Assembly (NCBI GenBank): GCA_910574455.1
Contig: CAJSYZ010000010.1
Span: 2,508,770-2,572,769, forward strand
Direction of reading: 5' to 3'
Length of the DNA: 64,000 nt
Source: Trichaptum fuscoviolaceum
Taxonomy: Eukaryota; Basidiomycota; Agaricomycetes; Hymenochaetales; Trichaptaceae
Shown here in pieces: positions 32,953-64,000 of this stretch (position 1 is the stretch's first letter; each line of letters begins with the position of its first letter). The position numbers and the translations under genes are program-made. The notes under the pieces are model-generated. The model was not told where the DNA came from and did no database searches. It was given only the letters and a program-made list of their open reading frames with translations.

Positions 32953-35263
32953 ATGGCCCAGGTCATCGTTGTTGGTGGCGGTCTCGCCGGTCTCTCGGCC
33001 GCACATACTCTCCTCGAACGAGGCGCGAACGTCCTCCTCCTTGACAAGCAGCCGTGAGTGTCCAGTCGCTTTCTTTTCGTTCTGAATTTGCTTTTGCTTC
33101 TGCTTTCTGTGGGGTTTGAGGAGGTGTGGTGGTGGTGCGGATGATGTGAAGTTTAGTTTTGGTGTAGAGAGGTGGTGGCAGCTTATCGTCGTGATTGACG
33201 GGGGATTCTGTATACAGGCTGTTGTAGTATGGTCTCACTTCGTGCCGGCGATAGACGGATGAATCGTTTATGCTTCCGGTTCCCTCCCCAGTATTTTGGC
33301 ATGCTGCGGGCACTAGAGCTTCATTATGGGCATCAGCGACGACCAGCATTTCAAATTCTTCTTGGTCTCGAAATCTGTGTACTGACATGCTTCCGCTCCT
33401 AGTTTCATGGGTGGCAACTCCACAAAGGCGACCTCAGGCATCAACGGCGCCGGCACCGTCTCGCAGCAGGATCTCGGGATCCAAGACTCCGCAAAAATCT
33501 TCTTCGAGGACACCAAGCGGTCCGCCAAGGAGCTCGCGCGCGACGACCTCATCCGCGTGCTCACGGGGCGCTCCGCCGACGCCGTCAACTGGCTCATCAA
33601 CCGCTTCGGGCTCGACCTCTCCAAGGTCTCGCGCCTCGGCGGCCAGTCGCGTCCCAGGACGCACCGCGGCGGCGCGCAGTTCCCGGGTATGGTCATCACG
33701 TACGCGCAGATGGAGCGCCTCGAGGACCTCGCGGTCTCCGCGCCCGAGCGCGTGCAGATCAAGAAGAAGGCGCGCGTCGCGAAGCTGATCAAAGACGGTG
33801 AGACGGTCGTGGGCGTCGAGTACGAGCACGACGGCCAGATGCAGACGGCGTACGGCCCGGTGATACTGGCGACGGGCGGCTACGCGGCGGACTTCACGGA
33901 GAGCTCGTTGTTGAAGAAGTACAGGCCGGAGCTGTGGGACCTCCCGACGACGAACGGCGACCATTGCACGGGCGACGGCCAGAAGCTCGCCATGGCCGTC
34001 GGCGCGAACGGCATCGACCTCGAGAAGGTGCAGGTGCACCCGACGGGCCTCGTTGACCCGAACGAGCCGGACGCGAAGGTCAAGTTCTTGGCTGCGGAGG
34101 CGCTCCGCGGCGTCGGTGGGCTGCTCCTCGACAACGAGGGCCAGCGCTTCGTCGACGAGCTGCAGACGCGTGACTACGTCACCGGCAAGATCTGGGAGAA
34201 TGGAAAGGTAAGCTGCTCTGACTTCTCATTTATTCGCTTTTTAATGAATTATCGCCAGTACCCCATCCGCCTTGTGCTCAACGGCGCCGCGTCGAAGGAG
34301 ATCGAATGGCACTGCAAGCACTACTGTGGGCGCGGGCTCATGAAGCACTACACCAACGGGCACGACCTCGCGAAGGACATGGGCATCCCCGCGTCCACGC
34401 TCGAGAAGACGTTCAGCACGTACACCGCGCAAGCCAAGGCGCAGAAAGACCCCTTCGGGAAGAAGTTCTTCCAGAACGCGGACTTCCGGATGGACGACGA
34501 GTTCAACGTCGCGATCATGACGCCCGTGCTGCACTACACGATGGGCGGGCTCGAGATCGACCCGGAGTCGCGCGTCCTCGCGCCCGGCGCGAAGCCCATC
34601 CCCGGCTTGTTTGCGGCCGGCGAGGTCGCGGGCGGCGTGCACGGCGCGAATCGCCTCGGCGGCTCGTCGCTGCTCGGGTGTGTGGTGTTTGGCCGCGTGG
34701 CGGGCGACAGCGCGGCGGCGTATCTCTTGCAGAACGCGGGTGCGGCGGATAAGGCGAAGGGACGGTTGGGCGCGGTTGCGGGACACCTTGGCGGCCAGCC
34801 GTTGAGCACGACGATCACGATCGACCCGAGCCAGTCGAAGGTGAACCTCTCCTTCTCGTGGGCCGACGGCGCTCCGTCCTCCTCCTCTTCCACCTCCACC
34901 CCCGCACCCTCCACCTCCACCTCCGCACCCGCATCGTCGAGCGACAAGCCCAGCGCGTCCGCCGACGAGGAGAAGTCCGTCAAGGCCGACGCCGACGCCG
35001 CCGCCAACGCGCCCTCACCGGCCTCGGGCGGCGAATACACGAAGGAAGAGGTCGCGAAGCACAACAAGAAGGACGACATCTGGGTGATCGTCGACGGGCA
35101 GGTGCTGGACGTGACGAAGTTCCTGCCGGACCACCCCGGCGGGGAGAAGGCGATCCTGCTGTACGCGGGGCGCGACGCGACGGAGGAGTTCAACATGCTG
35201 CACGACCCGAAGGTGATCCCGCGGTATGCGCCCGATGCGGTCATTGGGAAGGTTAAGGCGTGA
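32953..35263 (+). CDS. Soluble fumarate reductase with C-terminal cytochrome b5 domain
   Basis: Three exons (32,953-33,053; 33,403-34,207; 34,259-35,263) give 636 residues. Residues 3-34 are the FAD-binding Rossmann start (VIVVGGGLAGLSAAHTLLER). FMGGNSTKATSGINGAGT follows, then VILATGGYAADF, and HYTMGGLEIDP leading to LFAAGEVAGGVHGANRLGGS, the FAD_binding_2 signature of Osm1/Frd1-type enzymes. After a Ser/Thr/Pro-rich linker, a cytochrome b5 domain (YTKEEVAKHNKKDDIWVIV, haem ligand in LPDHPGG) ends the protein at IGKVKA. It would reduce fumarate to succinate with FADH2, reoxidising NADH or flavins under low oxygen. The b5 tail could feed electrons. No organelle leader is seen. The first intron is 349 bp, long for this genome; the second is 51 bp. 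Its GC-rich codons mark it as an expressed housekeeping gene. Confidence 0.93.
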
Positions 35264-38021: not shown

Positions 38022-39242
38022 CTACATTACAAAGTCTGAAAGTGCTTCCCTGGAACTACCCAACTTGATGCGCCGCACTTGACAAATATTCTCGAGGCGT
38101 TGAGAGAAAACCGTATTCAGGCTTCCAGGCCGAACATATACGAGTAGCCTGAGTGATGGGAACTTCTCTGCGGTTTCCAGATATTCGGCAATACTGTTGA
38201 GCTGCTGTGGGTTTGAAGGAGAGTCGCAGAGCAGCCGCTCGAGAAGAGGGAGAGTCGCGATGGATCCCAAATCTAATGTCGTGCAGACGAGCTGCAGCTC
38301 TCGAAGTCCTTGTAGCATAGAGAGTGCCTCGGATAGAGGTTGGTAAAGTGAGCGATATCCCTGTATATGAAGCTTGACGTACTCGAGCGTTGCGGACCAT
38401 GCGCGTAAGCATTCGCACAGTCCATCTAGTGCCGTGCGTCTACTTTCTGAAGGACTCCCATTCAACGGGACATTGAGCTTCATTACACCGCCGCACATAG
38501 CTCGTAACACCCTAAAGTCTTCGTTGTACAGAATAGATCCGGTGAAGACGATCTCCTGAAGCTCCGGACAGTATTTGCAAGCCTGGGACGGGTCGAATGC
38601 AAGCACTTTCTCTTCTTCTACGTTTCCCAGGTAGTGCTTAGCGTGGAATGTTCGGAGCTTCGGCCATGTCCGCATCACGTCAAAGACCTGTACTGACTTT
38701 CCCCACGGAACCCCATACATAGACAGATTTCGAGAGTCTATGCTAAAAGAGATGAGGGATTTTTCCTTTAGAGCGTCGATAAGGAGGCTGCGTCTGTGGG
38801 ATCGGAATCCCCGAATCTCTACGTGCTCCAAGTTGGGACACAGTCGTAGAATGCGAATGTTTGTCTGCAACCATTGTGCGAGCTCGTTGGTGTTGTCGCC
38901 ATCCGTACCTAACCGCAGCTCCTTGACCAATTTGGCCAAACGAGGTTCCGCTTCTAGTGTTGTTAGGAGATCAATGGCAATCGTATGCCCAGAGCGTCCT
39001 TCGCTTCGAAGAGGGTATTTGCTTCCAATGGAAACGGAGCGATACAAGTATTCTTCGGCTACCGCATACCAGAGTTTGCATACCCGAAGGAGAGACGTGA
39101 GGTACCAACGAGGAAGAAATTCGGTTGAATCGGAGCGTCTTGACCTCGTACTTTCATGGTCATGAACGAGACTTTCAACGATTATCTTCAGGATTTCAAC
39201 AGGTACTTCAATCATCGTCACTGCCTCTAGTCTTTTGTCCAA
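38022..39242 (-). CDS. F-box/LRR protein, intact
   Basis: A 406-codon frame: an F-box from MIEVPVEILKIIVESLVHD, then RWYLTSLLRVCKLWYAVAEEYLYRSVSIGS, LCPNLEHVEIRGFRSHR, VMRTWPKLRTFHAKHY, YCPELQEIVFTGSIL, GLCECLRAWSATLEYVKL, LRELQLVCTTLDLGS, LPLLERLLCDSP and ICQVRRIKLGSS. Two in-frame Mets are possible (the first gives nine extra residues). No lesion. It is divergent from the plus-strand F-box gene at 40.3 kb, with a CTA/TAG palindrome between. Its closest neighbours in sequence are that gene and the 26-27 kb pseudogene. Confidence 0.85.
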   Translation of the reverse strand: MDKRLEAVTMIEVPVEILKIIVESLVHDHESTRSRRSDSTEFLPRWYLTSLLRVCKLWYAVAEEYLYRSVSIGSKYPLRSEGRSGHTIAIDLLTTLEAEPRLAKLVKELRLGTDGDNTNELAQWLQTNIRILRLCPNLEHVEIRGFRSHRRSLLIDALKEKSLISFSIDSRNLSMYGVPWGKSVQVFDVMRTWPKLRTFHAKHYLGNVEEEKVLAFDPSQACKYCPELQEIVFTGSILYNEDFRVLRAMCGGVMKLNVPLNGSPSESRRTALDGLCECLRAWSATLEYVKLHIQGYRSLYQPLSEALSMLQGLRELQLVCTTLDLGSIATLPLLERLLCDSPSNPQQLNSIAEYLETAEKFPSLRLLVYVRPGSLNTVFSQRLENICQVRRIKLGSSREALSDFVM

Positions 39243-39443
39243 ACTCAGTTAGCTTGTCTTTTGAACAGCGTGAGTCTCATACAGTGTCTTATGCCAGTAG
39301 GTTTGAATTGCCAGATTTTAGGCCGAAATATGCTGCTGTAGTCGTCAAAGACAGATGATGATAACGATGATGATGGAAGTGATGGGAGTGTGGTACCGAA
39401 TTTGACGTTGCCAAAAGCGGAGTGCTGTTTCCACGGCGGTGGG

Positions 39444-39944: not shown

Positions 39945-40313
39945 AAACCTCTCGAGCGCATGCAGCACGAACAGGTCAGAAATTTTGCTTCCGATCTGAT
40001 TTTCGCAGCCTTGACATGTTTTCCGACCTCGGTTGCGCTTCCGAACAGACTCTCATTCAAACGTCTGGAGTGATTCCGCTCCAGGTCCTACATCCGGGTG
40101 GTATTTATGGGAACGCTAAAGGCTCGATTTTGGACACGCCCAACCAGGCTCACCTCTCACCAGCCTCCGTTGCATTGTCGATAGCTGGAGAACTAGCAGG
40201 GTGATAGGCGAGGTCTTCAACGCGCACATCGTACGAGCCTTATATCTCTTAAGTTGGACTTGAACTAACGTGTATGTGACCTTCAGGCACAGTGGCTCTG
40301 TCTAAGGATCGCC

Positions 40314-41588
40314 TTGCAACAAATAGCACCTGAGATGATCGAGCTACCCGCCGAGATCTTGGAGATCATTATTGAAATCTTCATATCGCAATACAAAGAT
40401 CTGCACTCGAGTAGATCAAACTCAATCAAGTTTCTCCCCCAGTGGTACCTCACACCTCTCCTACGTGTCTCCAAGCTATGGTGCCAATTGTCCGAACGCC
40501 ACTTGTATCAGTCCATCTCTGTTGGCAGCAAGTTTCCTCGCCATTTTCCAGCCCTGGATGGCGAATCCTTCGAGGAGAGGAAAGAACTTCTTCGCCATAT
40601 CCTGGAAACTCAGCTGAAGCAGCCCGGGCATATCACCGCTGAAGTCCTGGTGAACACACTGGCAAAGAATTCACGGCTGGCCTCGCTGGTCAAAGAACTG
40701 CAGCTAGGCATCGAGGATGACAACCACGACGAAGTGCCGGAATGGACATTAACTATCATTAGTATCATTCGCCTCTGCCCGAATGTGGAGCAGATAGAGA
40801 TACGTGGCTTCCACTACACCAAGCTCGACAAGCTGATGGCGGCGTTGAAGACGAAGTCATTGGTGTCTTTGTACATCTGTCCACGAAACTTGTCCAACAT
40901 TGGCACGCGGGGTGGCACAGCGTCTCAGCTCTTTGAGGCGATGCAAAGCTGGCCGAAGTTGAAAAGTATCACGGCGGATGGGTTCTTGGACGTGACGCGG
41001 AGGGGAGAACCTTTATCGGCTGAGGCTACCTCGCTCATTAAGTGCTGCCCGGAGCTCCAGACGCTCGTCTTCACTGGGGCCGATCTTGATGCGACGGACC
41101 TCAAGGCGTTGCGCTTGATGTGCCCTCGCGTGACCAATCTCCACATTCCGATCCAAGGTGGTCAAGGCAAAAACGGAGAGGAAACGCTTGACGCACTGAG
41201 CGAGTGCTTGCGAGCATGGTCCTCGACCCTCGAGTGCGTCAGACTGAAAGTACGCGAGTACCGCGTCCCGTATGCCCCATTCTGCGACGCCCTGTCCACT
41301 CTGAAACACCTTCGGGAGCTTCACATCGATTTCATGGAGGTGGAAATGGACAGTATCTCAAAACTTCCACGGCTTTCGCATCTGCTTTGCTCGTCAATGG
41401 GCAGTACCACGCAGGTTGACAATCTCACCGACAGCCTGGAAGAGCCCGACACATTTCCCTCCCTCAATGTTGTCGCAGTACGACTCAACCCTGATGAGGA
41501 GTATGGGCAACGTCTCGAGAACAATTGCATGTGGCGGAGTGTTTGGTTGCAGAAATACGACGACCAACTTTCGAGCTTCTCGCTGTAG
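40314..41588 (+). CDS. F-box/LRR protein, intact
   Basis: 424 codons. The F-box is MIELPAEILEIIIEIFISQ, followed by QWYLTPLLRVSKLWCQLSERHLYQSISVGS, LCPNVEQIEIRGFHYTKLD, AMQSWPKLKSITADGF, CCPELQTLVFTGADL, ALSECLRAWSSTLECVRL, LRELHIDFMEVEMDSISKLP and RLSHLLCSS, ending WLQKYDDQLSSFSL. The first in-frame Met (QQIAPEM) may be a few codons before the true start. It is the only complete plus-strand member of the array. Promoter and the CTA/TAG tract are shared with the divergent gene at 38-39 kb. Confidence 0.85.
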   Translation: MQQIAPEMIELPAEILEIIIEIFISQYKDLHSSRSNSIKFLPQWYLTPLLRVSKLWCQLSERHLYQSISVGSKFPRHFPALDGESFEERKELLRHILETQLKQPGHITAEVLVNTLAKNSRLASLVKELQLGIEDDNHDEVPEWTLTIISIIRLCPNVEQIEIRGFHYTKLDKLMAALKTKSLVSLYICPRNLSNIGTRGGTASQLFEAMQSWPKLKSITADGFLDVTRRGEPLSAEATSLIKCCPELQTLVFTGADLDATDLKALRLMCPRVTNLHIPIQGGQGKNGEETLDALSECLRAWSSTLECVRLKVREYRVPYAPFCDALSTLKHLRELHIDFMEVEMDSISKLPRLSHLLCSSMGSTTQVDNLTDSLEEPDTFPSLNVVAVRLNPDEEYGQRLENNCMWRSVWLQKYDDQLSSFSL

Positions 41589-42824: not shown

Positions 42825-43914
42825 TTAATGACGCTGGTTTATAATGTCACCAGACGGAAGATTCTCAATGAGCTTTGTCAGCGGACCATGCATACAATAC
42901 TTCAACCAATCTGAAGAACCCGGGGTTTTTCTTGAAAGCTCAAAGTCGATGATGCGGCATCTGAGCGTACGCCCGTGTAGCGGTGAGGGTAACCCAGGCA
43001 TTGCAAGAGGTGAGTCGAGTGTTTGAAGTAAGTTGTCTATCCGAATGTCGAAGTGCTCGTATCCGAGCTCGGCTAGCACGTCGTAGGCTGCGAATGCGTC
43101 GTTCCTGTTGAGACGTTCAGCTTCACGTGTGCATTTATAAAAATGCATAGCAAGCGCACTTTATTTCTTCCGGCGTAGAAATTCCTACAGTTAAGAATTC
43201 CCCGCCAAGTCGCTCAATCAGCAGTAGCACTACTCGGTTCGGGTCCTCCAATCGTGTCAAGATTGTCCTATTTGCAGGTGTCTCCTGGAATCCGCCAACA
43301 TACATATCTTTGTACAACTGTTCTGGCTTCTTCAAGTAGACGTCCGGCGAGCTGTCATTGCTCTTTGGGCCATTTGCAGCAGAGCTCCACGGCAGGAAGT
43401 CTTGCTCTCTCCCAGTTGGAAGAACAGCCTCGAAGAACCCAAAGCACCGCGGGATGGCGATTCCCTGGATGGTCTGCATCTCGTCGTAAAACCACGCCTC
43501 CCGAGCGAGGCATTTGTTGCGCTCGCGTGCTGCGATCTTACAGACCAAGGGTGGGACTCGCACGTGTCGTCCGTCTGATCCGACCACATTTGTCGGTGTC
43601 TGAACCTCGTAAACGAGTCCACTGCGGCCCGAAGCGATGAATTTACCCAGACTTGCTTGAAGGTCGATGTGACTGGATGGTGGATAAGTAGCGAGGTGCC
43701 GGGCCTCGCGATTTTTCTCTCTGCAAAAGTCCTCAACGAAGTCTACTGGTAGGTCTATCCTTCGGAATGTTAGTGGTGGAGCTGCTTCATATCCTTCTCT
43801 CTCAACGAATGCGTCTTGAACGGTCAAAGACTGTGCGTCAATGCGATTCTACACAAAACGTCAATAGATGATGATGATTCATACATGGAGTGGAGTTTAC
43901 CAGTGTAGTCATAT
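42825..43914 (-). CDS. Fungal kinase-like protein, divergently paired with a nuclease-like gene
   Basis: Three exons (43,903-43,914; 43,160-43,848; 42,825-43,104) give 326 residues. The first exon is four codons (MTTL); introns are 54 and 55 bp (GTAAAC/GTAG; GTGCGC/ACAG). Seen motifs: a glycine loop (IASGRSGLVYEV, about residues 75-86), the ATP-lysine in PPLVCKIAA (K108), helix-C-like AREAWFYDEMQTIQG (E121), hinge-like VVLLLIERLGGEFL, the catalytic loop EHFDIRIDNLL (H251, D253, N258) and CRIIDFELS in the DFG position (D287). All residues needed for phosphotransfer are present. The family is common in Agaricomycetes; its substrate is unknown. It is divergent from the PD-(D/E)XK gene 0.9 kb away and very similar to the 49.7-50.8 kb copy. 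CATAAAAG lies about 75 bp upstream of the start. Confidence 0.85.
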
Positions 43915-44016
43915 TAATTAGTAAAGAAACACCGTACTGTTCTTGAAGATGAGGGCTTGATGAACTCTGACTACCCTGGTGCGCCAACTTTTATGGTCTT
44001 AATACCGTGCGAAGAA

Positions 44017-44058
44017 ACTACTAGTACTGGTACTAGTATTAGTAGTAGTACTAACTAG
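44017..44058. repeat. CTA/TAG palindromic tract in divergent promoter
   Basis: ACTACTAGTACTGGTACTAG continues with TAG/CTA units to CTAACTAG. It lies about 100 bp upstream of the kinase-like gene and 780 bp upstream of the nuclease-like gene. Confidence 0.6.
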
Positions 44059-44834
44059 AACTGGCACTCAGGCTGCAAGTGCATGGCCGATTCAAGTCGG
44101 CCGACATGGAGGTTTCGGCGACAGAAGAAGGTATGCATATATGCTTAGCGAAGAATGCTCGGAAATTCACTTTCGTTCCTTCATATCTGGTTGAATGGAG
44201 ACATTCTAAGATCAGACTTCTTCGGAGCTTCTCCCAAAGGAATGGCATAAGGGATACCCGTAATGTATACAAGAACTAGCTAACGGAAAATGATAGACGA
44301 TCCCACTGTGCTCTTGTATTCCACTATCATACCTGTCCATGTCTATTCTGTCTCTGACATTTGTGCGTTCTTCGGCATTTTCCTGGTACATTATTGATTT
44401 AGACTCCGTTCCTAAGCAAAACCGGACTCACTATTTTTCATAGTAGTTTAATGGAGGACTGAGCTTGCATATGGCAATACTGAGGCTCGCATCCGTGGTG
44501 ATAGTCATGGAGCTCAATGAATTCTATGAAATAGATCACTCTGTTCATTGCGTTCTCATCACAGGGAAGCATTCTAGGAACATATATCATTCTTCAATCC
44601 TCACTCTTCTTATTTACTACATTCTTCATTCATGGAGATTGGTTTAGGATATCAGAGAGTTCTACGCCAATGTTGAAAGCTGAGCTTCTGGGAATTTAGA
44701 GATGATGTTAGTATCTGCCACTTAAAGTAGAGTGAATATAAGAACATCTTCATGAACCGTTTTTTCTATCAGACGACTGGAGTCGAACTCACCTCTAGCT
44801 CTGAGACACACCGAAACTCATCAACACTGATATC

Positions 44835-46282
44835 ATGGCCCAAGTTCTATGGAATCAAAATGGCCTGACAAGAACTTACTTGCCAAATTTGTTTTCTCAT
44901 TTCGGCATGACTCAAGGTACTCGGAATGCCTTCCATCAGCAGACTGGACTGAGTCACTACGAAGCGGAGCACACCCCGGTGCAAGGACCAGAGACATTCC
45001 CTTTTACGACGCCTCCGGGACTTCTCGCATTCTATCATGCCATGAATCTGCCAATGGTGCCGCCAAGCATTACCGTTGGCAGTTTGTATGCACTACCACT
45101 CAGAACCGAAGACAGATCTAAAACAAAGGTTGCGGATGCCGTTCTCAGTTTGCCATACGCGAGACAACTGCACCAGGTCAAGTGCTCAAAATGCCTCTGG
45201 GATAATTTAGTGGAGTATGCTAAAGCTATGGACGTGAACCGCCCAAATACATACCAAGTGAACCATGCAATAGCTACACGAGGAAGTCAAATGCGGGCTA
45301 TCTGTGGGCTGTTTGGGTGGTTCCAAAAACAGCTGTTTAGCACGCAACATCTCGTTAATTCGGAGCCAGATGTGCAAGATGTAGTATTCAATGATTTAAT
45401 CAGCTTCGCAAATGAGGAGTTAAAAGTAAGCACGTACTCCGCTCCAATGCCAAGCTGAGCAATGTCTGATTATACATTAAGGCCAGATATCCAAATCACA
45501 TCCAAGATGTTGGGAATGATGTAATGCATAACCGGGTTCAATGGACATATAACTATCCGGTCGGTCATAATGGTCCACCTACTGATGCAACAATGCCAGT
45601 TTGGAAGATGCCTGTCTCAAAAAGTCATAAGGATGCCGACGGAGGTGGGCCTTCAAAAGCAGGATATCCTGATTTTGTTCTTTATTATGCACCAGCAAAA
45701 GGGAAGCATTCCGCTATAGCTGAGATAAAGACTTTCTGGTCCTACAAGATTCAAGAAGTGATTAATATATTTCGCCAAGGCATTTTGACAAACGACAGAC
45801 GCGGACATGCCGAGTTTCCGGAACTTCCAGTTCATCTCGAAATTCCAGGTGAAGATGGAGGATACTTCGATTGGCGCAATACACTTGACTCAGCAGACAT
45901 AGTGAAACAAGTAAGCTTAGAGATCACGAGTAACTGTGATATCTTACTGAAGACCTGTCATCAGATTTGGGGAGAGGTCGAGGCCTTTAAAGTTAGATGG
46001 GGAGTTTGGACAAACGGCAAGATAATACTTGCTTTCGTCAGGACGGGAACATACAATGTGAACATACCTGGATCGGCAAATCAGCTGACATTCAGCAAGA
46101 TTATGAACATAAACGCACCAAATGTGATTCACCTCGGGTTCCTTGGCCTGTGCTTCGCCAGTCTGGACGAGAAGGAGGACATGGTAGCCAACCTACCTGT
46201 ACAGGATCTTGTACAGGTATTATGCCCAGAGGGAGATAGATTGAACCCACTCACTCAGGACTGGTCAGCAGTCAACCTTTAG
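44835..46282 (+). CDS. PD-(D/E)XK nuclease-like protein
   Basis: Three exons (44,835-45,425; 45,482-45,910; 45,965-46,282; introns GTAAGC/TAAG and GTAAGC/TCAG, the latter 54 bp and also open) give 445 residues. The N-terminal ~180 residues (TYLPNLFSHFGMT, LHQVKCSKCLWDNLVEYAK) are unrecognised but conserved in the 63-kb copy. A helix NSEPDVQDVVFNDLISFANE (~176-195) precedes the nuclease signature: PD at 260-261 in GYPDFVLYY and E278-x-K280 in AIAEIKTFW, 16 residues apart. KVRWGVWTNGKIILAFVRTG follows, the core-strand motif of HSDR_N/PD-(D/E)XK folds. Such folds cut nucleic acid with Mg2+ bound by D and E. No signal peptide. It is divergent from the kinase-like gene at 42.8-43.9 kb. Nuclease fold by motif only; activity unproven. 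Confidence 0.8.
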
Positions 46283-47745: not shown

Positions 47746-48061
47746 GTGCTCGGAGCCTGCCAGTGCCTGCCACTGGCAGTGTCACGAGTCGTGGTGTGCG
47801 GAAGCCTCCGCGGCTCGCACCAGCAATAACTTGGTCTAGGGTGAGGGTGGGTGGGCTTGCGTGACAGATGTTCGATTGTGATGGAAGGACTGCTTCATTC
47901 TCTTCGACAACGACCTCCACGCAATCGATGGCATTTCTTCTGCGTACAATACAAGGCTTTTGCCTCGTTCAGATAGCTACCCTCGTATGTTCTGCAGTAT
48001 TAACTTGTGTAGATCTGAGAGCTGACAAAGGCATTTAACCTCGATAGCACAAGTTATCTAT
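47746..48061. other. Intergenic, contains CAGTGCCTGCCACTGGCAGTG hairpin words
   Basis: GCCTGCCAGTGCCTGCCACTGGCAG is a short self-complementary stretch at about 47,757-47,780. The upstream part of the next F-box gene must lie here, but no start exon was placed. Confidence 0.35.
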
Positions 48062-49346
48062 CGAAATAGTGGTGATAATCGTTCAATATCTCGTCTTAGA
48101 TTATCAGAAAACAGAGAGACCAGCACTATTCACTCCTCGATGGTACCTCATACCCATCCTTCTAGTATGCGAGCAATGGCATTCGGAATTCGAGAAACAC
48201 ATGTATCGCACCGTAGCAGTTGGAAGCCATGCTCCCTTTGACTTTCCCGCGAGAGATGGCGAGGCTCCCTATGCCACAGATTATCGCTATCATCTCCAAG
48301 CAAGCAATACTTCAATGTGGAAACGAAATCCTCGACAGGGACACAGAGTTGCAGAGGACCTGCGAAGAACACTGTCAAAGAATGCTCGGCTGGCTGGACT
48401 CATCACTAAACTGCAGTTGGGCATCAACCCCGTCTTTCGCCCAGACGATGGGTCTCCATATGCTCCGGAACGAGACCCGTATTTTGAACATGAGCCGGAA
48501 TGGATGGAAACGAACGTTCGCATTCTGCAGCTCTGCCCGAACGTAGAGCACGTGGAAATTCGAGGCTTCGAGGCATCTGAGCTTGATGCCCTGGTCAATG
48601 TCTTGAAGAAAAAGTCTCTCATCTCTTTCCAAATATCCTCGCAGACCCTATGCCGAAACTTTGTGGAGGGTGCGCAAAGCTACTCGCATATTTTTGACAT
48701 GATGGAATCTTGGCCGAAGCTCCGAAGCATCAAGGTGCTTTCGTTTATGAGCTACGATGCTCTGGATTTGATAACTTTTGAATCGTCGGGCACGATCTCT
48801 CCTCGCTGCCCAGACCTTCGAGAAATCGAGATCACCGGCGCTATGCTACGTGTTCGCGAGGTGGCACGAATGCCCGCAATGTGCTGCGGTGGGGTAACAA
48901 GACTTTCTGTTTCATACCTAGATTTCTACGTCTACCCGGGAGCGATAGTCGCACTCTGCAATTGCTTACGTGCATGGTCCTCGACGCTTGAGTACTTTGA
49001 GGTACGCACCCATTGTGAAAGCCCTTCGTCGTATTGGCCGCTATACGAAGTTATGAACAGTCTGACGAAGCTTCGGGAGCTAAAACTCGGATTCAAACTC
49101 GGGCGGATGGAGATGGATGCGGCTGGCTCTATTGCCAGACTCCCAAGGCTGGAGCGTCTCCACTGCGCTTTGAGAGGAGAAGGGCAGCAAACTCTTTCCC
49201 GCCAGCTCGAAGACCTGAAAACATTCCCCTATCTCAATCGCATCTTACTCTTCCTTGAACCCGAGTCAGAGACAGAGGTTCTCTACGAGCTTCAAAATAT
49301 GTGGCAAGCGGAACATACAGCTGGCCGAAAGCAGAAACTGGTATAA
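48062..49346 (+). CDS. F-box/LRR protein, start unresolved and end frameshifted
   Basis: A long open frame carries IEIVVIIVQYLVLDYQ (weak F-box), RWYLIPILLVCEQWHSEFEKHMYRTVAVGS, LCPNVEHVEIRGFEASELD, MMESWPKLRSIKVLSF, RCPDLREIEITGAML, ALCNCLRAWSSTLEYFEV, LRELKLGFKLGRMEMD and LPRLERLHCALRG. No ATG lies between the last upstream stop and the F-box, so either a 5' exon exists or the start is lost. At about 49,300 the family's C-terminal block RNIQLAESRNW lies in the next frame, so the present end (AGRKQKLV) is probably shifted. Possibly a very recent pseudogene. It faces the kinase-like gene that ends 319 bp downstream. Confidence 0.6.
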
Positions 49347-49664
49347 ATACTGGTAATGCGAGTGCGAAGACTTCTTTTCTTAACGTGGGTGTCACTTTCA
49401 AGGCTACGATGTTCAACCTTCGGAGCCCAACAATATCTTCGACCTCACTCTTCATGTTCAGTCTGAGCTTTGCCCCTCCTTCTTTTACCAAGCTGTTAAT
49501 TCCACCGGGAAGATAAAAACGATTTACAAAGCCTTGTAGATCGCAGATGAAGCTTTCACGCATGTAAAGGACTGTTAACGATTCTATAATAAATGTGTAT
49601 TGTTGTCCCACAACTATGTCTACAGCAGACAGTCCGAACATCGACACATGTATCCGTCTCACTA

Positions 49665-50751
49665 CTAGTAAAGACGCTGGTTTATGATGTCGCCAAACGG
49701 AAGATTCTCAATGAGCTTTATCAGCGGACCATGCATACAATACTTCAACCAATCTGAAGATCCCGGGCTTTTCCTTGAAAGCTCAAAGTCAATGATGCGG
49801 CACTTGAGCGTACGTCCGTGCAGTGGGGAGGGTATCCCTGGCAGTGCGAAGGGTGAGTTGAGTGTTTGAAGTAAGTTATCTATCCGAATGTCACAGTGCT
49901 CGAATCCGAGCTCGGCTAGCACATCATAGGCTGCGAATGCGTCGTTCCTGTTGAGACGTTCAGTTTTACGTGAGCATTTACAATGTATAGCATGCGCACC
50001 TTATTTCATCGGGGGTGGAGATCCCCACCGTTAAGAATTCCACACCAAGTCTCTCGAGCAGCAGTAGCACTACTCGGTTCGGGTCCTCCAACCGTGTCAA
50101 AATTGTCCTATTTGCAGGTGTCTCCTGGAATCCACCAACATAGAGATCCGTGTACAACTGCTCTGGCTTCTTCAAATAAGCGTCCGGCGAGCTGTCATCG
50201 CTACTCGGGCCATTCGCAGCAGAGCTCCATGGCAGGAAGTCTTGTTCTCTCCCAGTTGGAAGAACAACTTCGAAGAACCCAAAGCACCGCGGGATGGCGA
50301 TTCCCTGGATGGTCTGCATCTCGTCGTAAAACCACGCCTCCCGAGCGAGGCATTTGTTGCGCTCGCGTGCTGCGATCTTACAGACCAAGGGAGGGACCTG
50401 AATGTGTTGTCCGTCTGATCCGACCACATTCGTTTGTGTCTGAACTTCGTAAACGAGTCCACTGCGGCCCGAAGCGATGAAGCTACCCAGACTTGCTTGA
50501 AGGTCGATGTGACTGGATGGTGGATAAGTAGCGAGGTGCCGGGACTCGCGATTTTTCTCTCTGCAGGAGTCCTCAACGAAGTCTACTGGTAGGTCTATCC
50601 TTCGGAATGTTAGTTTCGGCGATGTTTCATATCCTTCCCTCTCAATGAATGCGTCTTTAACGGTCAAAGATTGTGCGTCAATGCGACTCTACAGAGGAAG
50701 TCAATAGAAGCAATGTTTCATACAGTGTGTTTGCCATACCAATGTAGACAT
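49665..50751 (-). CDS. Fungal kinase-like protein, recent duplicate
   Basis: Exons 50,740-50,751 (MSTL), 50,000-50,688 and 49,665-49,947, introns 51 and 52 bp, 327 residues. It has the same motif set as the 42.8-43.9 kb gene: IASGRSGLVYEV, PPLVCKIAARERNKCLAREAW, EHCDIRIDNLL, CRIIDFELS. Most of the sequence is identical in nucleotides, including long runs in exon 2, so the duplication is recent. No lesion seen. No nuclease-like partner is present upstream; instead a degraded plus-strand kinase fragment lies at 51.4 kb. It faces an F-box gene as in the other copy. Confidence 0.85.
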
Positions 50752-51399
50752 GGTACTCAGTAAGGGATCTACCTGAGTATCCGTATTGGCTGTTGCTCAA
50801 CGTGAATGTTCCGTTACTCCAGACCAGTGTAGTAGTAACGTCTTTTATTTGCTTACACCGCGCGGAAAAGTGCGTCTCCATGGCGGAAGTGATGGCGGAT
50901 ATTTGACCCACTGCTAACCCCAAACGTGCGCTCGCTTGGGATACAAGAGGCTCCTTGATCTTGCGCATAATAGTAGGCCTTCAGTGACCAGAGTAGCCAT
51001 GAGCTACCAGCGTTTCTCAAATGAAGTCATTAAACACGTTTATACCTCAAGATGCAGTGACGTACAGGTTAATTTGTTAATCATTGATTCATGGGGCTGT
51101 CCTGAGAGATAACAGATATGCACAACCTGATTGTGATGTTGTTTTGAACCTCCATTTCACTCAGAAGGTACAAAAAATGCGACCGAGAATTTCGCATCAC
51201 AGAAGGTAGTTGGACGGTCTTTTGTCTGGTTGTAAAAGTTTCACCTACTTGAAGTTGCAGCTTCAAGCGGAGTTCAAATGCCACTCCGTGCTGACGCGGC
51301 GGCTATCTTCTCTCCTGATACACTCACCGCACCGACTCACCGCAAACGAAGATATAGTCACAGTGGACATGCCGCCTACAAGCTATGCGCCCCGCGCCC
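50752..51399. other. Intergenic, no gene seen
   Basis: Upstream region of the kinase-like gene; only short frames without motifs. Confidence 0.4.
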
Positions 51400-51612
51400 G
51401 TCGCCTCTTACAATCCCCGGAGAGAAATTAAAGCGGACGGGAAGGACGTCTGCTTGTCGCATCGTCGACTTCGAGCAATCTATCAGGGACCCGATAAATC
51501 CTAACTCAGTCAATCGTCTTGCGGATTCTGTGCTAATCGGAGTCGGGGTCTGAACCGAGGAATACTATGGAGAGGAACAGCGGTTGGCAAATGCAATGTG
51601 TTATATGCCTTA
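51400..51612 (+). pseudogene. Kinase-like C-terminal fragment
   Basis: IPGEKLKRTGRTSACRIVD, then FEQSIRDPINPNSVNRLAD, matches the DFG-region block of the pseudogene at 52.3-53.5 kb (IPGEKSKRTDRTFACRIID). A frame change near 51,553 leads to EEYYGEEQRLANA. Only the last ~70 codons are left. It lies on the opposite strand to its relative, an inverted duplicate. Confidence 0.7.
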
Positions 51613-52290
51613 GATAGCAAGGGGTAAATGTATGACTGAAGGGTGTCTGAGGTAGCTTATAGGCAGTAAACTCAATTAAAATAAGAGAAGGAAAATGAGA
51701 GTTTGTGTTATTCATAGAGGATACTAACTGAGGCTGCGCACCTCCCTCTCGCTATGAACATACGTGAGGACCGTAATCAACAGAGGTTGTATGAACTCGT
51801 CCAGCCAGTGTAGCACGCACTCCGGCTGGCAGTGTCAGTATATTCACTATGAGTGAGAAGATGGTCGAACGAGCTTGTACATGCCGGACTTTCACGTCCA
51901 TTTCTGACGTAGGATTGGAGTGACTCGATTATATGCGAGAGCGGGCTAGAGAGGAGGTAGTCGTCGAGGACTTGAAGGTTTTCTAGCATGATCCCATAAC
52001 AAGAATATTAAGCGCAATATGGTATAGTCAAGTATGAGCAACAAACAATGAGAGTGAGAGGATGGTCGGAGGAGTGAAGCCTGAAACATGACTTCGCGAC
52101 GCGCAAGCTTCAAGTTGAGGCATGGTCCTCGGCGTGACCCCCGACTCAGATTCCAGGGAAGGAAAGAAATTCAAGACAAATACCTCGAACTTCCCATATT
52201 TATCAAAGATTTGCCTTGTCATGTGTATGCAAGTTTACTGTCTATGAGATCATATACATCCCAAGCAATCAAGACTTTATCCCCTGATAT
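51613..52290. other. Intergenic, no gene seen
   Basis: No motif or frame of note on either strand. Confidence 0.4.
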
Positions 52291-53469
52291 CTACAAATTG
52301 ATTCCATTTTCGCGTGCTATTCGTCGTTCCTCTTCAAAGAACCCTTCTTCAAAAACCCCATCCCGGATCAGCTCATGTTCCGCTAGACGATTGAGTAAAT
52401 CGGGATTAATCGGGCCCCTAATAGATTGTTCAAAGTCAATGATACGACAGGCAAACGTCCTATCCGTTCGCTTTGATTTCTCTCCGGGAATAGCAGAGGG
52501 AGACGTGAGCACGGCGCAGATGTTGTTGAAGTTGACGTCATAAAGGTTGATACCAAAGTGTGCCAGATCGTCGTACGCAGCGTACACTTCGTCGCTATGG
52601 ATAGGGGAAATGAGCAATATAATCATATTCATCAGTAGATACACGCACCTTATCTCTTGAGGGATGATCCCATATTCGTTTTGGTGCTGCTCCAGATATA
52701 CAGGACCCAGTCGCTCGAGTAACAACAACGTTACACATCTCTCATTTTCGAGTCGTGTGAGAATCTCCCTGTTCGTAGGATTCTCTATGAAGGTTCCTAG
52801 CCCTCTTCAGCGGTAAGATTCCTCCAGCAGTGAATCATCATCGTAAACTTCTTCTCTATCTTCTGTATCATCACGGGCCCGTGGAAAGATCTCCATATCA
52901 CTTAGAATGTCTGCTAAAAATAGACCAAAGCAACGCAGAACAACAACGCCCTGAATGGTCTGCATCTCGTCGTACATCCAAGCTTCCGAGCAATGAGTTT
53001 ATTGCGGCACTCAATAGAGAACTTGCAAGCGAGAGGCGGGATGTGCACAGGACGACCATCAGGTCCCTGTACATTCAGAGGGGCATTAACTGCATAAACA
53101 AGGCTGAGTACCCTGATCCAAGGTGGCTGGAAAGAGAGAGCTCAAGGTCCAGATTCAAGGATGGAGGGAGGTCAACGAGCGGCCGAACTAAGCGAGGCTC
53201 CTCATTTAAGATAGCGTTGTCAAACACGAAGTCCACGGGAAGGTCTAATCTCTCGAATCGGAGGGTCTTAGACTTGTTCGTTTTGCTTTCGTAGATTCTT
53301 TTAATGGAGATTGAACGGATGTCAATTGGAGACTAGGACGTGTGCCATTAGACAACGAACTATGATGAAATAACTAAAAATTCAAGCTTACTAAATATCG
53401 GACACTGGGACCCGCCTGATCGTCTTCTTTACCATTTTGCTCCGAAAAAGACGTATCGATGATTTTCAT
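52291..53469 (-). pseudogene. Kinase-like pseudogene
   Basis: Exon 1 encodes a leader (MKIIDTSFSEQNGKEDDQAG). After the intron, SPIDIRSISIKRIYESKT and LRFERLDLPVDFVFDNAI begin the family domain. CKFSIECRNKLIAR is followed by EAWMYDEMQTIQG in a different frame (one base missing at about 52,983). A TGA at about 52,812 interrupts EESYR and RGLGTF. The rest (LLLERLGPVYLEQHQNEYG, then a catalytic-loop exon with NLYDVNFNNICAVL and CRIIDFEQS) is readable. The catalytic histidine-aspartate pair is already altered. Confidence 0.8.
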
Positions 53470-53910
53470 AGAGAGTGGCGCACGAGTGGGAGAGGTTGAA
53501 GAAGAGGACGGCCCCCCATCTTCTGATCGGTCGAAGCAGGATGCTTGCTGCTTTGGTACGTAATTGAAAAGCACGCCCTTCCGACTGGTGGTAGAAATTA
53601 GCAAAAACAGTAGCTAGTGACAGAGGAGTCCTCACCTCTCGCTGGCTACTCTCGGAATGATTAATAGCCTACGCTAAGCACAGGCTCGCTCGACTCAAGA
53701 GGGACAGCCAAAGTACAGTGCCTGGCAGGGAAAAGTCGAAAAAGTTTGTTGCTCGGCAGTGCTCACATGCTGTTCCGGGTACAAATAAATAAGGCTGCGT
53801 AAATAGCTGTGGTCGGACTCAGCGCTTTTTGTCTTGGAGATGATCAGCTTTCTAGTGGCATTGGCAACTTTCTGAACGGTGAAAATTGTAATTCAGATTT
53901 TGCGCGACTC

Positions 53911-54370
53911 GGCGGAGGCGTGGGAGTTAGACTCCGAGTCCCGAAGGTGTTGACTTTCCGCCGCTGGTCCCTGAGCCCAAAAAGGAAAGTAAGTTAGGGT
54001 CGGGTGCCAACACATCGGCAAAGGACTTGCCGGTGCACAGCATGAAACCACTCACCATCGACTGTGACAGAGCACCCTTGCTATCCTCCCTCCACCATCC
54101 TTCCCTCCACTTTCTAACAAGCTGCATAGAATAGTAGTGTCACCTTATGTTTCCCTATCAAAATACTAATTTCGATGTCCCCATGTCAAAAATGCACATT
54201 CTGTTAAATTTTAAGTGCAAATGTGGTTTTCATTCCTCCGGAGTTTAAACCACGGCATGAGTGTGCCGGAGGTCAAAAACACTGTTTTGGGCACACTTTC
54301 CTTTTTAGGTTTCAGGGACCGGCGGCGGAAATTCAACAACTCAGTCCCGACTCGGAAGCCGCCGGCGGAC
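53911..54370. mobile_element. Inverted-repeat element with ~80-bp arms
   Basis: Arms 53,911-53,990 and 54,293-54,370 are imperfect inverted repeats. Shared words include CTCCGAGTCCCGA against TCAGTCCCGACTCGGAAG, and TTTCCGCCGCTGGTCCCTGA against TCAGGGACCGGCGGCGGAAA, and CAAAAAGGAAAGT against ACTTTCCTTTTT. The interior is short and non-coding. It abuts the left end of the 54.4-57.8 kb element. Confidence 0.65.
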
Positions 54371-54798
54371 TTCTAACATCATACAGTTGACATTTTAATA
54401 GTGCATAAGGTCCGTCCCCAAGTTAAGCTATGCATTATGAGATGTTATGCAAAGTAATATTATTCCCGCTACACCCTAGCGGGTTCTAATAGCGTACTGA
54501 CTTGCACCTTTCAAAAGCAAAACCTTATTTATCATGTGACTTAAGGTCTGGACCGGTCTTCGGGAAATATAAAGATCCGGTTGCATGCGAGTCAACTCGC
54601 CTCGGAACCGAATACTAGCAATGTCTCGGATGTCCCCGAGAATCCTCTTCCTCACTATGACCTCCTCTTTGTCGCCTTGCATTCTGCCTCGTCCCCGACT
54701 ACCACAGACAAGCAGAACAAAATATACTTTCCCTATCCTTGCTCTCATTTTCTATGTCTCCCATGACCGTTCGGTGTGACTTGCAGCCTGAAGAACAT

Positions 54799-55580: not shown

Positions 55581-55619
55581 ATTTTCATATGTTTTGGTAT
55601 TTATTGAATTCCGCCACAC

Positions 55620-58461: not shown

Positions 58462-59566
58462 TTAATACAGGTAATGTAATTTCTGATTCAGAACATCACC
58501 GGCAGGAAGACCATACATCAGATCATAGAGCGGGGTATGCATCTCTTTTTTGAGGATGTCCGTGGATACAGCCGTTTTACACGAAAGTTCGAAATCGATG
58601 ATTCGACACTTCAGAACCCTGTTATGGATTGGAGAGGGTATCCCAGGGAGGGCAAGGGGTGAATCAAGTGTACAGAGCAGATTCCCGAGCCGAATGTCGC
58701 AGTGCTCGAATCCAGCCTCAGCAAGGACGTCGTATGCTGCGTATGCGTCTTCGCTATGTAAACAGTCAGCCGATCTGGGTCTGTGCAGTTCAGCTGATAG
58801 ATGTGCGTACCGAATTTCGTCTGGTATTTTCGTGTAAAGGGGCAGAAACTGACCTCCAAGGCGCTCGAGTAGTAGCAGAACGACCCGCTGGGGCTCTTTG
58901 ATCCGCCTGCGGATCTCCCAATTTCTAGGTGTGTCTTGAAATGACCCTACACCCGTTCTTTCATATAACAAGTCCGCTGCGCGCTCCTCAGGTGTCCGGT
59001 CTTTGTAGTACGTCTCCACCGTATGCGGAATGAACTCAAATCCCTTTGGTATTTCGGCCTCGAAGAGTCCAAAGCATCGGGGGATCGCCATGCCTTGGAT
59101 CGTCTGCATCTCGTCGTAGAACCACGCCTCGCGCGCCACACACGTGTTGCGGTCAGGGGCTGCGAACTTGCAGACGAGGGGAGGAATCTGGATACATCTT
59201 CCACTCGAATCGAGGACGCTCGTGGGGGTGTTAATCTCGAAGACGCTTCCGGAACGCCCAACGGCGATAAAATTATCCAACTTAACCTGGAGATGCAAGC
59301 GTGCGGATGGAGGAAAAGACGCGAGTTTGCGAGGATGATGAACGCCTGGATACACGTCATGAACGAAATCAGTAGGTAAGTCTATCCTGGAGAAGGTCAT
59401 CGAGGGACCAGCGGCCTTGGTATGACTATCTATTGCAGAGCGTAGGGTAAGAGCGACAGGATCGATTGGAGACTATGACGAAGTCAGTACCAAAGAACGG
59501 ACCAGATGAGACATTTCACCGTACCAATGGAATCATATCGTTTGATGGAAGAGCACTTGCTTCCAT
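58462..59566 (-). CDS. Fungal kinase-like protein, second subfamily
   Basis: Exons 59,525-59,566, 58,811-59,472 and 58,462-58,753, introns of 52 and 57 bp (GTACGG/ATAG; GTACGC/ATAG), 331 residues from MEASALPSNDMIPL. Motifs: IAVGRSGSVFEI (Gly loop), PPLVCKFAAPDRNTCVAREAWFYDEMQ (Lys and Glu), RVVLLLLERLGGQFL, EHCDIRLGNLL (catalytic H-x-D and N) and CRIIDFELS. The 57-bp second intron is also open, so an unspliced frame of the same length class exists. I favour splicing because the paralogues keep introns at this exact site. It is most similar to the gene at 60.8-61.9 kb; no nuclease-like partner is adjacent. Substrate unknown. Confidence 0.85.
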
Positions 59567-60772: not shown

Positions 60773-61881
60773 CTAACATCTCTGATTCAGAACATCACCG
60801 ACAGGAAGACCATACATGAGATCATAGAGCGGGGTATACATGGATTTTTTCAACAGCTCCGTTTCAATGCCCGTCTTGCACGATAGTTCGAAATCAATGA
60901 TTCGGCACTTGAGAACTCTACCATGAAATGGAGAGGGTATACCGGGAAGGGCGAGAGGTGAGTCCAGCGTACAGAGTAAGTTGCCTAGCCGGACGTCGCG
61001 ATGCTCAAAGCCAGCCTCAGCAAGGACATCGTATGCTGCGTATGCGTCTTCGCTATATAGGGTTATTCAAAAGGCTTAGCAGAGCTGGATCTTTACAATG
61101 CAGTTGAAATGGAAGACACGTGCGTACCGAATCTCATCAGAAATTGTCGTATAAAGGGGTAGAAATTGACCTCCGAGGCGCTCTAGCAGCAACAGAACAA
61201 CTCGCTGAGGTTCTTTGAGCCGTCTGCGAATCTCCCAGTTTGCAGGAGTGTCTTGAAATGATCCTATGCCCTTTCGTAAATAGTACAATTCACCTGCACG
61301 CTCTTCAGGAGTTCGATCTTCGTAATCCATCTCAAGCGTATGCGGAATGAACTTGAAACCATCCGGTATCTCGGCCTCAAAGAGCCCGAAGCATCGCGGT
61401 ATGGCCATACCTTGGATCGTCTGCATCTCGTCGTAGAACCATGCCTCGCGCGCCACGCACGAGTTTCGGTCATGAGCCGCAAACTTGCAGACGAGGGGAG
61501 GGATATGGATGCGCCGCCCATCAGAGGCGATGATGGTAGCAGGAGTTTTGATCTCGAAGACAGTGCCAGAACGTCCATCGCCAATGAAATCTCCCAAGTT
61601 TGCCTGAAGACTCAGATGTGAGGAGGGAGGAAAGGATGCAAGCTTGCGGGGATAATAAACGTCTGGATACGCGTCGTGGATGAAATCAGTGGGTAATTCT
61701 ATCCTTGAGAATGTCAGAGAGGGCCCAGCAGCTTTGGTCTGACTGTCAATCGCTGAGCGTAGGGTCAGAGTGACGAGATCGACTGGAGACTACGGCAAAG
61801 TCAGCTGTATGGGACGAATGGACAATGGCATGACCGTACCAAAGGTTTGTCGTCAGTCGTGGACAGAGAGTTTGCTTCCAT
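60773..61881 (-). CDS. Fungal kinase-like protein, divergently paired with the second nuclease-like gene
   Basis: Exons 61,840-61,881, 61,128-61,789 and 60,773-61,052, introns 50 and 75 bp, 327 residues. It starts MEANSLSTTDDKPL, like its tandem neighbour, then SPVDLVTLTLRSAIDSQT. Motifs: IGDGRSGTVFEI, PPLVCKFAAHDRNSCVAREAW, RVVLLLLERLGGQFL, a catalytic loop EHRDVRLGNLL (the only copy with a canonical H-R-D) and CRIIDFELS, ending GDVLNQRC. All catalytic residues are present. It is divergent from the PD-(D/E)XK gene whose start lies 1.2 kb away, repeating the arrangement at 43-45 kb. Confidence 0.85.
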
Positions 61882-63023: not shown

Positions 63024-63030
63024 TATAAAA
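63024..63030 (+). promoter_or_regulatory. TATA box of nuclease-like gene
   Basis: TATAAAA lies 77 bp upstream of the chosen ATG, followed by a pyrimidine-rich TTTTCTCTCTCATC stretch, a usual fungal core-promoter layout. Inferred from position. Confidence 0.55.
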
Positions 63031-63100: not shown

Positions 63101-64000
63101 ATGCAGAACGAAAATGCACCAGGCATAAGGAGGCTTTACCTCCCGAACTTATTCTCTCGATATGGGCTAACTGATGCTCAACTGAATCATTTCGAAACAG
63201 TCTCAGGACTACGTGTGTGTGGTCCGCATGAGTTCCCAATGCCAGACCATACAGTCCAGGGGATGGGTTTTCCATCTGCTGACCCGAATGGAGTTCATTT
63301 ATACCCAGCACAACGCACCCCACCGAGCCTCCGAATTGGACGCATTGTCCCACTTCCATTGAGGACTAGTGATAACTCGCGCACTGGTATTGCTCCATCA
63401 ATTAACCAGTTAGCCCGTCCGCATCGATTGCATCAGGTTAGATGCTCTAATGTTCTTTGGAGCAACTTGGTGTCCTATGCAAAAGGCGACGGCGTGAGGC
63501 ACACCTTCAATACAAATGAGGTCATAGCAACTAGAAGGGATCAGACCAGAGCTATCTTCGCGTTACAAGGTTGGTTCCAGAAGAAACTTCATCAAGCTGA
63601 ACACCTTGTCAACTCCGAGCCGGACATGCAAGATATTATCTACAATGAGCTCATAACGTTCGCCAATGAAGTGTTCCGGGTGTGTCTACTTTGAAAGAGA
63701 ATGGATTCGGGCAGAGGCTGACTTGAATCACAGTCTAGGTATCCGAACCATGTTTCTGACCCAGTTGTACCTGCTGCACCCTGGGTTGATGAGCTCGAGT
63801 TCCCAGTCGGACGAAATGATTGTACAATGCCTGTATGGAAGAAACCTGTATTAGCGAGCCACAGGGCACGAACACAAGAGGGCCAGCGTAGCAGGGCCGG
63901 GCTTCCGGATTTCTTGCTTTACTACGGGCGAGGACATACACAGCAGTCTGTTATCTTCGAAATCAAGACATTTTGGTCCTACAGAGGCTATCATATTGCT
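63101..64000 (+). CDS. PD-(D/E)XK nuclease-like protein, cut by the window end
   Basis: It begins MQNENAPGIRRLYLPNLFSR, aligning with the start of the 44.8-kb gene (TYLPNLFSHFGMT), so I prefer this Met to an in-frame one 20 codons earlier. Shared blocks: RLHQVRCSNVLWSNLVSYAK, VIATRRDQTRAIFALQGWFQ and NSEPDMQDIIYNELITFANE. An intron at about 63,680-63,740 ends CTAG. Exon 2 carries YPNHVSDPVV, MPVWKKPV and the nuclease signature: PD in GLPDFLLYY and E-x-K in VIFEIKTFW, again 16 residues apart. The sequence stops after FWSYRGYHIA; the C-terminal part lies outside. It is divergent from the kinase-like gene at 60.8-61.9 kb. The spacing and motif conservation despite overall divergence argue for selection on the catalytic site. 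Confidence 0.8.

What the first reader, a model, noticed from the sequence alone, without database searches (positions are those of the whole stretch)
42825..46282. Divergent gene pair: intact kinase-like gene and PD-(D/E)XK nuclease-like gene
Seen: a minus-strand kinase-like gene with every catalytic residue (K108, E121, H251/D253/N258, D287) lies head-to-head, 0.9 kb apart, with a plus-strand gene bearing PD-x16-E-x-K and a following WGVWTNGK strand. Known: Podospora Spok spore killers combine a PD-(D/E)XK-type nuclease region (killing) and a kinase region (resistance) in one protein, and Crinkler-type proteins mix the same folds. Inference: this may be a two-gene version of such a conflict or defence module in a basidiomycete, with the kinase-like product restraining the nuclease-like one.
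Basis: partly seen in the sequence, partly recalled or inferred. Interest (0 to 1): 0.87.

Follow-up and report, generated by a model that had tools for sequence, protein, structure and literature searches.

The report
Paired nuclease-like and kinase-like fungal genes
In a mushroom-type fungus, five of the six copies found of a nuclease-like gene lie back to back with a kinase-like gene, while many kinase copies stand alone, as expected if one protein is a poison and the other its antidote, although no activity has been tested.

Summary
The unnamed 59-Mb genome holds six nuclease loci, five within two kinase clusters and one (p6) at the edge of one. Five of six have a divergent kinase about 1.0-1.5 kb upstream; at p6 it is 13 kb off, with a young LTR element between. 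Random placement gives about 3% each. Linked kinases are scattered over the kinase tree, four with firmly placed lone sister copies. Many kinases lack a nuclease; no nuclease was found without a kinase in its surroundings: the asymmetry expected of toxin and antidote. Against: the p3 kinase has lost its catalytic Asp and Asn; the nuclease fold rests on motifs and sub-threshold Pfam matches, its model failed; none of the five named species appears in both hit lists. Killing, rescue and drive are untested. Spok is an analogue, not a shown relative.

The parts
42825..43912 (-). kinase-like gene p1, 326 aa, 3 exons (43912-43901, 43848-43160, 43104-42825)
   Evidence: splice model; kinase residues all present; relatives; fold of a relative; dN/dS 0.20-0.25 against the copy at 49.7-50.8 kb
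43913..44834 (.). 922-bp intergenic region between the two start codons, presumed to hold both promoters
   Evidence: spacing of about 1.0-1.5 kb at 4 other loci; no blastn match at E 1e-5 in window 48000-64000
44835..46282 (+). nuclease-like gene p1, 445 aa, 3 exons (44835-45425, 45482-45910, 45965-46282); PD 260-261, ExK 278-280, Q340, TNG 356-358
   Evidence: P0023 supports the KQ/IW junction
49669..50763 (-). lone kinase copy k2, 90% identical to the p1 kinase, open reading frame intact, no nuclease match beside it
   Evidence: the DNA match to the p1 region covers only the gene (42826-43924)
52393..53326 (-). broken kinase copy, matches in three different frames
58465..59472 (-). lone kinase copy k4 (close to P0002)
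60779..61789 (-). kinase of pair p2
   Evidence: catalytic loop HRDVRLGN
63101..64000 (+). nuclease-like gene of pair p2; runs out of the window to at least C10:2573280
   Evidence: 51% identical to p1

Best explanation
A two-gene toxin-antidote-like module of a basidiomycete. The nuclease-like protein would damage DNA (or RNA) through a PD-(D/E)XK site, and the divergently transcribed kinase-like protein would neutralise it, most simply by phosphorylating or binding it or its target. Shown: both genes intact, active-site residues kept, recurrent head-to-head linkage, the same deep split in the two families, kinase-only copies common, no nuclease locus found away from kinases. Inferred: nuclease activity, toxicity, neutralisation by the kinase, and any use (drive, defence, incompatibility).
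For: Four nuclease queries find the same 6 loci, every candidate scored; 5 lie within kinase clusters, p6 13 kb beyond the outermost C9 kinase. 5 of 6 have a divergent kinase 970-1451 bp upstream, between match ends (the p5 start was typed as 596000, one search puts it near 595854); chance per random placement 3.1-3.6%, P(5 or more of 6) = 2.4e-7 under that model. Nuclease copies are 31-51% identical to p1, and p1 and p2 share no flanking DNA found by blastn, so the linkage is old. Both trees separate p1-p3 from p4-p6. p1-p4 kinases each have a lone kinase as close kin; p5 weakly so. PD-ExK D, E, K invariant in 8 of 8. All 6 linked kinases keep the Lys and Glu; 5 of 6 keep the catalytic Asp and Asn. 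P0004 (kinase) and P0025 (nuclease), unnamed, each come from one contig of 7,778 bp, the only length shared between the 14 kinase and 11 nuclease rows, and each joins the p1 branch. Control: the F-box/LRR-like family of the same C10 region has 117 matches (96 of 135 candidates scored), none within 250 kb of the three C9 nuclease loci. In Spok, a nuclease domain kills and a kinase domain protects (PMC6660238, PMC9972908, passages read).
Against: The linked p3 kinase has K in place of the catalytic Asp and H in place of Asn, while its nuclease keeps D, E, K: either p3 is decaying or protection needs no phosphotransfer. p6 is 13 kb from its kinase, about 6.3 kb without the LTR element, and a stop lies within its first matched exon stretch, so it may be damaged. 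None of five named species is in both hit lists. No expression, toxicity or rescue data. The nuclease fold is not established. Paralogous pairs are not independent events. The 2.2-kb limit and cluster bounds of the permutation were set after seeing the data, the C9 bound so as to include p6. Linkage in another organism rests on an equal contig length, not on a contig read.
Confidence: 0.42

Rival explanations
1. A cell-autonomous defence or heterokaryon-incompatibility module: the nuclease is an effector held back or switched on by the kinase when foreign DNA, a virus or a non-self nucleus is sensed; it benefits the fungus and does not cheat in meiosis.
For: Same anatomy; expanded, fast-diverging gene clusters, on C10 intermixed with an F-box/LRR-like family; an HsdR-like motif set.
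Against: No sensor domain recognised in either p1 protein (no Pfam family); kinase-only copies are not specially predicted.
Confidence: 0.25
2. The two proteins act independently or as partners in some housekeeping or developmental DNA process, and share a bidirectional promoter for co-expression; neither is toxic.
For: Divergent spacing of about 1 kb is compatible with co-regulation; dN/dS of 0.20-0.25 for the kinase is ordinary purifying selection; the p3 kinase is linked without catalytic residues.
Against: 6 nuclease loci against 42 merged kinase places, fragments included, in a few clusters with decayed copies; few relatives in the protein searches (1 hit, then 10 with a profile, 2 of these the window's own frames), unlike a housekeeping pair.
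Confidence: 0.2
3. Crinkler-type effectors: both proteins are delivered into other cells and act there.
For: Crinklers mix REase-like and kinase domains (recalled; PMC5289972 seen in search listings only).
Against: No LxLFLAK-like motif in either protein; no signal peptide seen by eye (no program run); separate genes.
Confidence: 0.05
4. The linkage is a by-product: one ancestral pair was copied with its neighbourhood and neighbours were simply not yet lost.
For: The copies are paralogues in few clusters, so events are not independent; no named species shows both genes.
Against: Nuclease copies are down to 31% identical to p1 while spacing and orientation persist; p1 and p2 share no flanking DNA; F-box/LRR-like neighbours are not found at the C9 copies (capped list).
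Confidence: 0.08

Closest known systems
Spok spore killers (Podospora and other Ascomycota)
   Same: A predicted PD-(D/E)XK nuclease (kills) and a kinase-like domain (protects); multi-copy, diversifying (PMC6660238, passages read). A QxxxY motif after ExK in Spok; here an invariant Q, QxxxE in 7 of 8 and QxxxQ in P0023, after ExK.
   Different: Spok is one polypeptide with a coiled coil, nuclease, Cys cluster and kinase; here two genes on opposite strands, no Cys-cluster motif in the p1 proteins, named relatives only from Agaricomycetes; no sequence kinship tested.
Pkinase_fungal / FunK1 (PF17667)
   Same: Fungal kinase family, expanded in the same genome (117 matches, 107 of 163 candidates scored); P0014, 60% identical to the p4 kinase, has a sub-threshold match (10.2 bits against a cut-off of 24.1).
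   Different: The p1 kinase has no Pfam match at E up to 10; most PF17667 matches lie elsewhere, though two places (C9:629 and 651 kb) fall in the C9 cluster.
HsdR N-terminal (PF13588) and VRR-NUC (PF08774) nuclease families
   Same: Sub-threshold matches at the expected segments: p6 PD...ExK to VRR_NUC, p5 Q-LWSEM...TNG to HSDR_N_2, E 0.03 each. That both are PD-(D/E)XK families is recalled.
   Different: Both far below the Pfam cut-offs, and unrelated families also appear at such E-values (7 of the 9 families); the N-terminal 200 aa have no known relatives.
Crinkler (CRN) effectors
   Same: Mix of REase-like and kinase domains (recalled).
   Different: No LFLAK motif, two genes.

Membership tests
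Spok spore killers | nuclease and kinase in one polypeptide | tested here: not met
   two genes on opposite strands
Spok spore killers | Cys/His cluster C-x3-C-x13-C-x5-H-x7-H before the kinase | tested here: not met
   p1 proteins; motif from PMC6660238
Spok spore killers | PD-(D/E)XK catalytic residues | tested here: met
   D, E, K invariant in 8 of 8, (motif only; fold not shown)
Spok spore killers | kinase catalytic Asp | tested here: met
   D253 in p1; 5 of 6 linked kinases, not p3
Spok spore killers | sequence kinship to Spok | not tested
   no Spok sequence held; no hit named so
Spok spore killers | spore killing and resistance in crosses | not testable with these tools
   needs crosses
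PD-(D/E)XK nuclease superfamily | PD-x(n)-(D/E)xK motif | tested here: met
   the P of PD is A in p3
PD-(D/E)XK nuclease superfamily | alpha-beta core fold | tested here: inconclusive
   AlphaFold2 of P0023 pLDDT 42.7; sub-threshold Pfam matches; no PDB sequence match
Protein-kinase-like fold | kinase fold and catalytic residues | tested here: met
   (model of P0002, not of p1 itself; TM-scores 0.26-0.45 in the 50 rows shown)
Pkinase_fungal (FunK1) | score above the PF17667 cut-off | tested here: not met
   no match; best of the 8 relatives scanned, P0014, 10.2 against 24.1 bits
Crinkler effectors | N-terminal LxLFLAK motif | tested here: not met
Two-gene toxin-antidote system | linked pair, toxin not found without antidote | tested here: met
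   5 of 6 nuclease loci within about 1.5 kb of a divergent kinase, the sixth 13 kb away
Two-gene toxin-antidote system | toxicity and its relief | not testable with these tools
   needs expression

The most novel reading that the evidence does not exclude
This is a two-gene killer element of mushroom-forming fungi: a diffusible nuclease poison and a kinase antidote in divergent genes, repeatedly copied in chromosome-arm clusters, with lone kinases acting as suppressors and, since the p3 kinase has lost its catalytic residues, possibly protecting by binding. It would be a molecular candidate for meiotic drive in Basidiomycota and a split counterpart of Spok reached independently.
Probability: 0.2. 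Interest if true: 0.88.

Novelty: new variant of a known kind. Interest (0 to 1): 0.62.

Why it matters
Kinase-guarded nuclease killing is known from single-protein Spok genes of Ascomycota. A split, repeatedly duplicated pair in Agaricomycetes would let poison and antidote be tested apart, would give a concrete candidate for drive or incompatibility in basidiomycetes, and would account for a kinase expansion that Pfam does not register. Among the rows listed by eight paper searches (10, 12, 12, 10, 10, 10, 3 and 12 rows of 19, 199, 35, 111, 163, 16, 3 and 2,020 papers; titles and starts of abstracts, open-licence PMC only) none reports such a pair; that is a thin search, not proof of absence.

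Tried and rejected
Pfam on exons (E up to 1) and on full models of both p1 proteins (E up to 10): nothing. PDB sequence profiles: nothing for the nuclease; for the kinase only weak kinase matches, best E 0.14. AlphaFold2 of the nuclease family member P0023: pLDDT 42.7, not searched further. An unseen second partner for lone kinases: divergent frames within 1500 b upstream of 31 fetched kinase loci and p1 were compared; several loci share flanks with a sister copy, and the one frame over 200 aa other than the p3 nuclease, shared by L006 and L007, is F-box/LRR-like (the same places are matches). The other lone kinases were not examined. FunK1 membership: rejected. Viral-contig scan with the nuclease profile: 30 stretches matched a pattern, none a relative. 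Whether linked kinases form one clade: no, 6 changes, no fewer than shuffles (42 rows = 30 of this genome and 12 database proteins; P0002, P0007, L015 and the remaining places left out). The nuclease tree was computed twice; branching inside p1-p3 and inside p4-p6 is mostly poorly supported and differs, only the split between them is firm. Two regular expressions for the kinase loop returned nothing because they were written wrongly; one search is the corrected one and gave no row for p3 and p5, which were read by eye.
Full report
Check of the observation. The kinase-like gene needs two short introns (52 and 55 nt); the spliced 326-aa product carries K108, E121, H251, D253, N258 and D287 as stated. 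The nuclease-like gene needs two introns; the second (45911-45964, 54 nt, a multiple of three without a stop) was invisible to a frame reader, and the product is 445 aa rather than 463. The annotated public protein P0023 (Amylostereum chailletii, 415 aa) reads straight across that junction. The start codons are separated by 922 bp.

What the proteins are. Neither p1 protein has a Pfam family at E up to 10. The kinase search gave 14 proteins; P0007 is the window's own p2 kinase frame, P0002 is nearly that of k4, and four are named, all from Agaricomycetes. A model of P0002, which appears to keep an unspliced stretch (residues 189-214, pLDDT under 50), folds as a small kinase (pLDDT 76, pTM 0.79). 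The 50 PDB rows shown of 1,583 are kinases at probability 1.00, with low TM-scores (0.26-0.45). The nuclease search gave 1 protein by sequence and 10 by profile, of which P0016 and P0018 are the window's own frames and one is named, P0023. In 8 members D, E, K of PD-ExK, a Q 62 residues after the E in p1, W and TN are invariant. Two members, p6 and p5, give sub-threshold matches (E 0.03) to VRR_NUC and HSDR_N_2 over the PD-ExK segment and the Q-W-E...TNG segment; I recall both as PD-(D/E)XK families. Unrelated families appear at like E-values (9 families at E up to 5 over 7 members, 2 of them these). The structure model of P0023 failed (pLDDT 42.7), so the fold is probable, not shown.

Copies in the same genome. 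The window lies in an unnamed 59.1-Mb genome of 12 contigs. Kinase matches fall in three clusters: C9 0.48-0.87 Mb, C10 2.46-2.76 Mb, C12 2.75-2.82 Mb; merged, 42 places, fragments included. Four nuclease queries find the same six loci and no others: p1 and p2 (in the window) and p3 on C10; p4, p5, p6 on C9. None is on C12. At p1-p5 a kinase lies upstream in divergent orientation, 987, 1315, 970, 1010 and 1451 bp between match ends (p5 by a typed start about 150 b too far in). p6 lies 13 kb outside the first C9 kinase, in divergent orientation; an LTR element of 6.7 kb with 818-bp repeats 99.8% identical lies between, which still leaves about 6.3 kb, and p6 may itself be damaged (a stop in its first matched stretch). 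A nuclease placed at random in the clusters, in random orientation, has such a neighbour within 2.2 kb in 3.6% (C9) or 3.1% (C10) of trials; five or more of six has probability 2.4e-7 under that model. Bounds and limit were set after seeing the data, and paralogues are not independent, so this is a guide, not a p-value.

History. In a tree of 42 rows (30 kinase places of this genome, 12 database proteins) the six linked kinases do not form a clade (6 changes). p1 pairs with lone k2, p2 with lone k4, p3 with a lone copy at C10:2.705 Mb, p4 with one at C9:0.846 Mb, all with firm support; p5 stands beside six lone copies (weak fork, 83/13); p6 is alone on a long branch. Nucleases and linked kinases both separate p1-p3 from p4-p6 (kinases 92/86 and 100/99; nucleases 100/99). 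The simplest story is an old pair whose kinase was copied many times without the nuclease, while no nuclease copy was found away from kinases. The lone copy k2 matches the p1 region only over the gene itself (42826-43924) and is under purifying selection (dN 0.05, dS 0.22-0.26). P0004 (kinase) and P0025 (nuclease), both unnamed, each come from one contig, whose length is 7,778 in both cases, the only length common to the two lists, and each joins the p1 branch: probably the same arrangement in a relative, not read directly. As a control, the F-box/LRR-like family interleaved on C10 (117 matches; 96 of 135 candidates scored) shows no match on C9 between 0.18 and 5.0 Mb, where p4-p6 lie.

Results against. 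The p3 kinase reads HYKVKRHH at the catalytic loop, without Asp or Asn, next to a nuclease that keeps D, E, K but has AD for PD. Some lone copies are decayed as well: strings with Lys to Glu, Asp to Asn and DFE to EFE in the C12:2.754-2.756 Mb loci, Asp to Asn at C9:850.7 kb. Of 17 distinct N-lobe strings that fitted a loose pattern, 16 keep the Lys. None of the five named species appears in both hit lists, Exidia, Punctularia, Artomyces and Auricularia having kinase hits and Amylostereum a nuclease hit; those searches reach only relatives sharing short exact words. Nothing here shows expression, toxicity or rescue.

Mechanism. Most likely a toxin-antidote-like pair: the nuclease injures nucleic acid, the kinase neutralises it. 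The step from anatomy to function borrows from Spok, where K240 in the nuclease is needed for killing and D667 in the kinase for resistance, and where Spok1 with a dead kinase disturbs DNA in E. coli and induces a damage response in yeast (PMC6660238, PMC9972908; passages read). Whether the pair is used for drive, defence or incompatibility cannot be told from sequence. A 2026 review of meiotic drive (PMC12941216) has no occurrence of 'basidiomycete' or 'agaric' at the start of a word in its main text.

Kinship. It works, on this reading, like a Spok split in two; it is not a Spok. One polypeptide and the Cys cluster are not met, and no sequence kinship was tested. It is not FunK1 and not a Crinkler.

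Verdict. I score it a new variant of a known kind, interest 0.62, with a 0.2 chance that it is a basidiomycete killer element.

Noticed in passing
window 38025-39248 (-), 40269-41585 (+), 48048-49343 (+), 20041-21318 (-), 17238-18686 (-): A large gene family, F-box/LRR-like by eye and by three sub-threshold Pfam matches among these five frames, is interleaved with the kinases; one copy as query has 117 matches in the genome, many near contig ends on C9 and C10.
   Followed up: partly
L006 (C10:2501448) and L007 (C10:2461065): Two lone kinases are head to head with F-box/LRR-like genes 84% identical to each other; the L007 kinase looks damaged in its last exon, without the usual IIDFE motif.
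   Followed up: partly
G000:C9:474667-481372: Young LTR element, Ty3-like by eye, 818-bp LTRs 99.8% identical, inserted between nuclease p6 and the nearest divergent kinase.
   Followed up: yes
G000:C10:2678545-2679219 and 2680189-2681623 (p3): A linked pair whose kinase has lost the catalytic Asp and Asn while the nuclease keeps D, E, K (P of PD replaced by A).
   Followed up: partly
G000:C12:2754465-2819140: Seven merged kinase places within 70 kb of the end of the contig, with no nuclease match on this contig; some decayed.
   Followed up: no
G000, PF17667 search: 117 matches to Pkinase_fungal (107 of 163 candidates scored), many in clusters on C3, C6, C7, C8, C10 and C12: a second kinase expansion in this genome.
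   Followed up: no
window 33386-35260 (+): Intact frame with FAD_binding_2 and cytochrome b5 domains, an ordinary gene about 8 kb from the pair.
   Followed up: no
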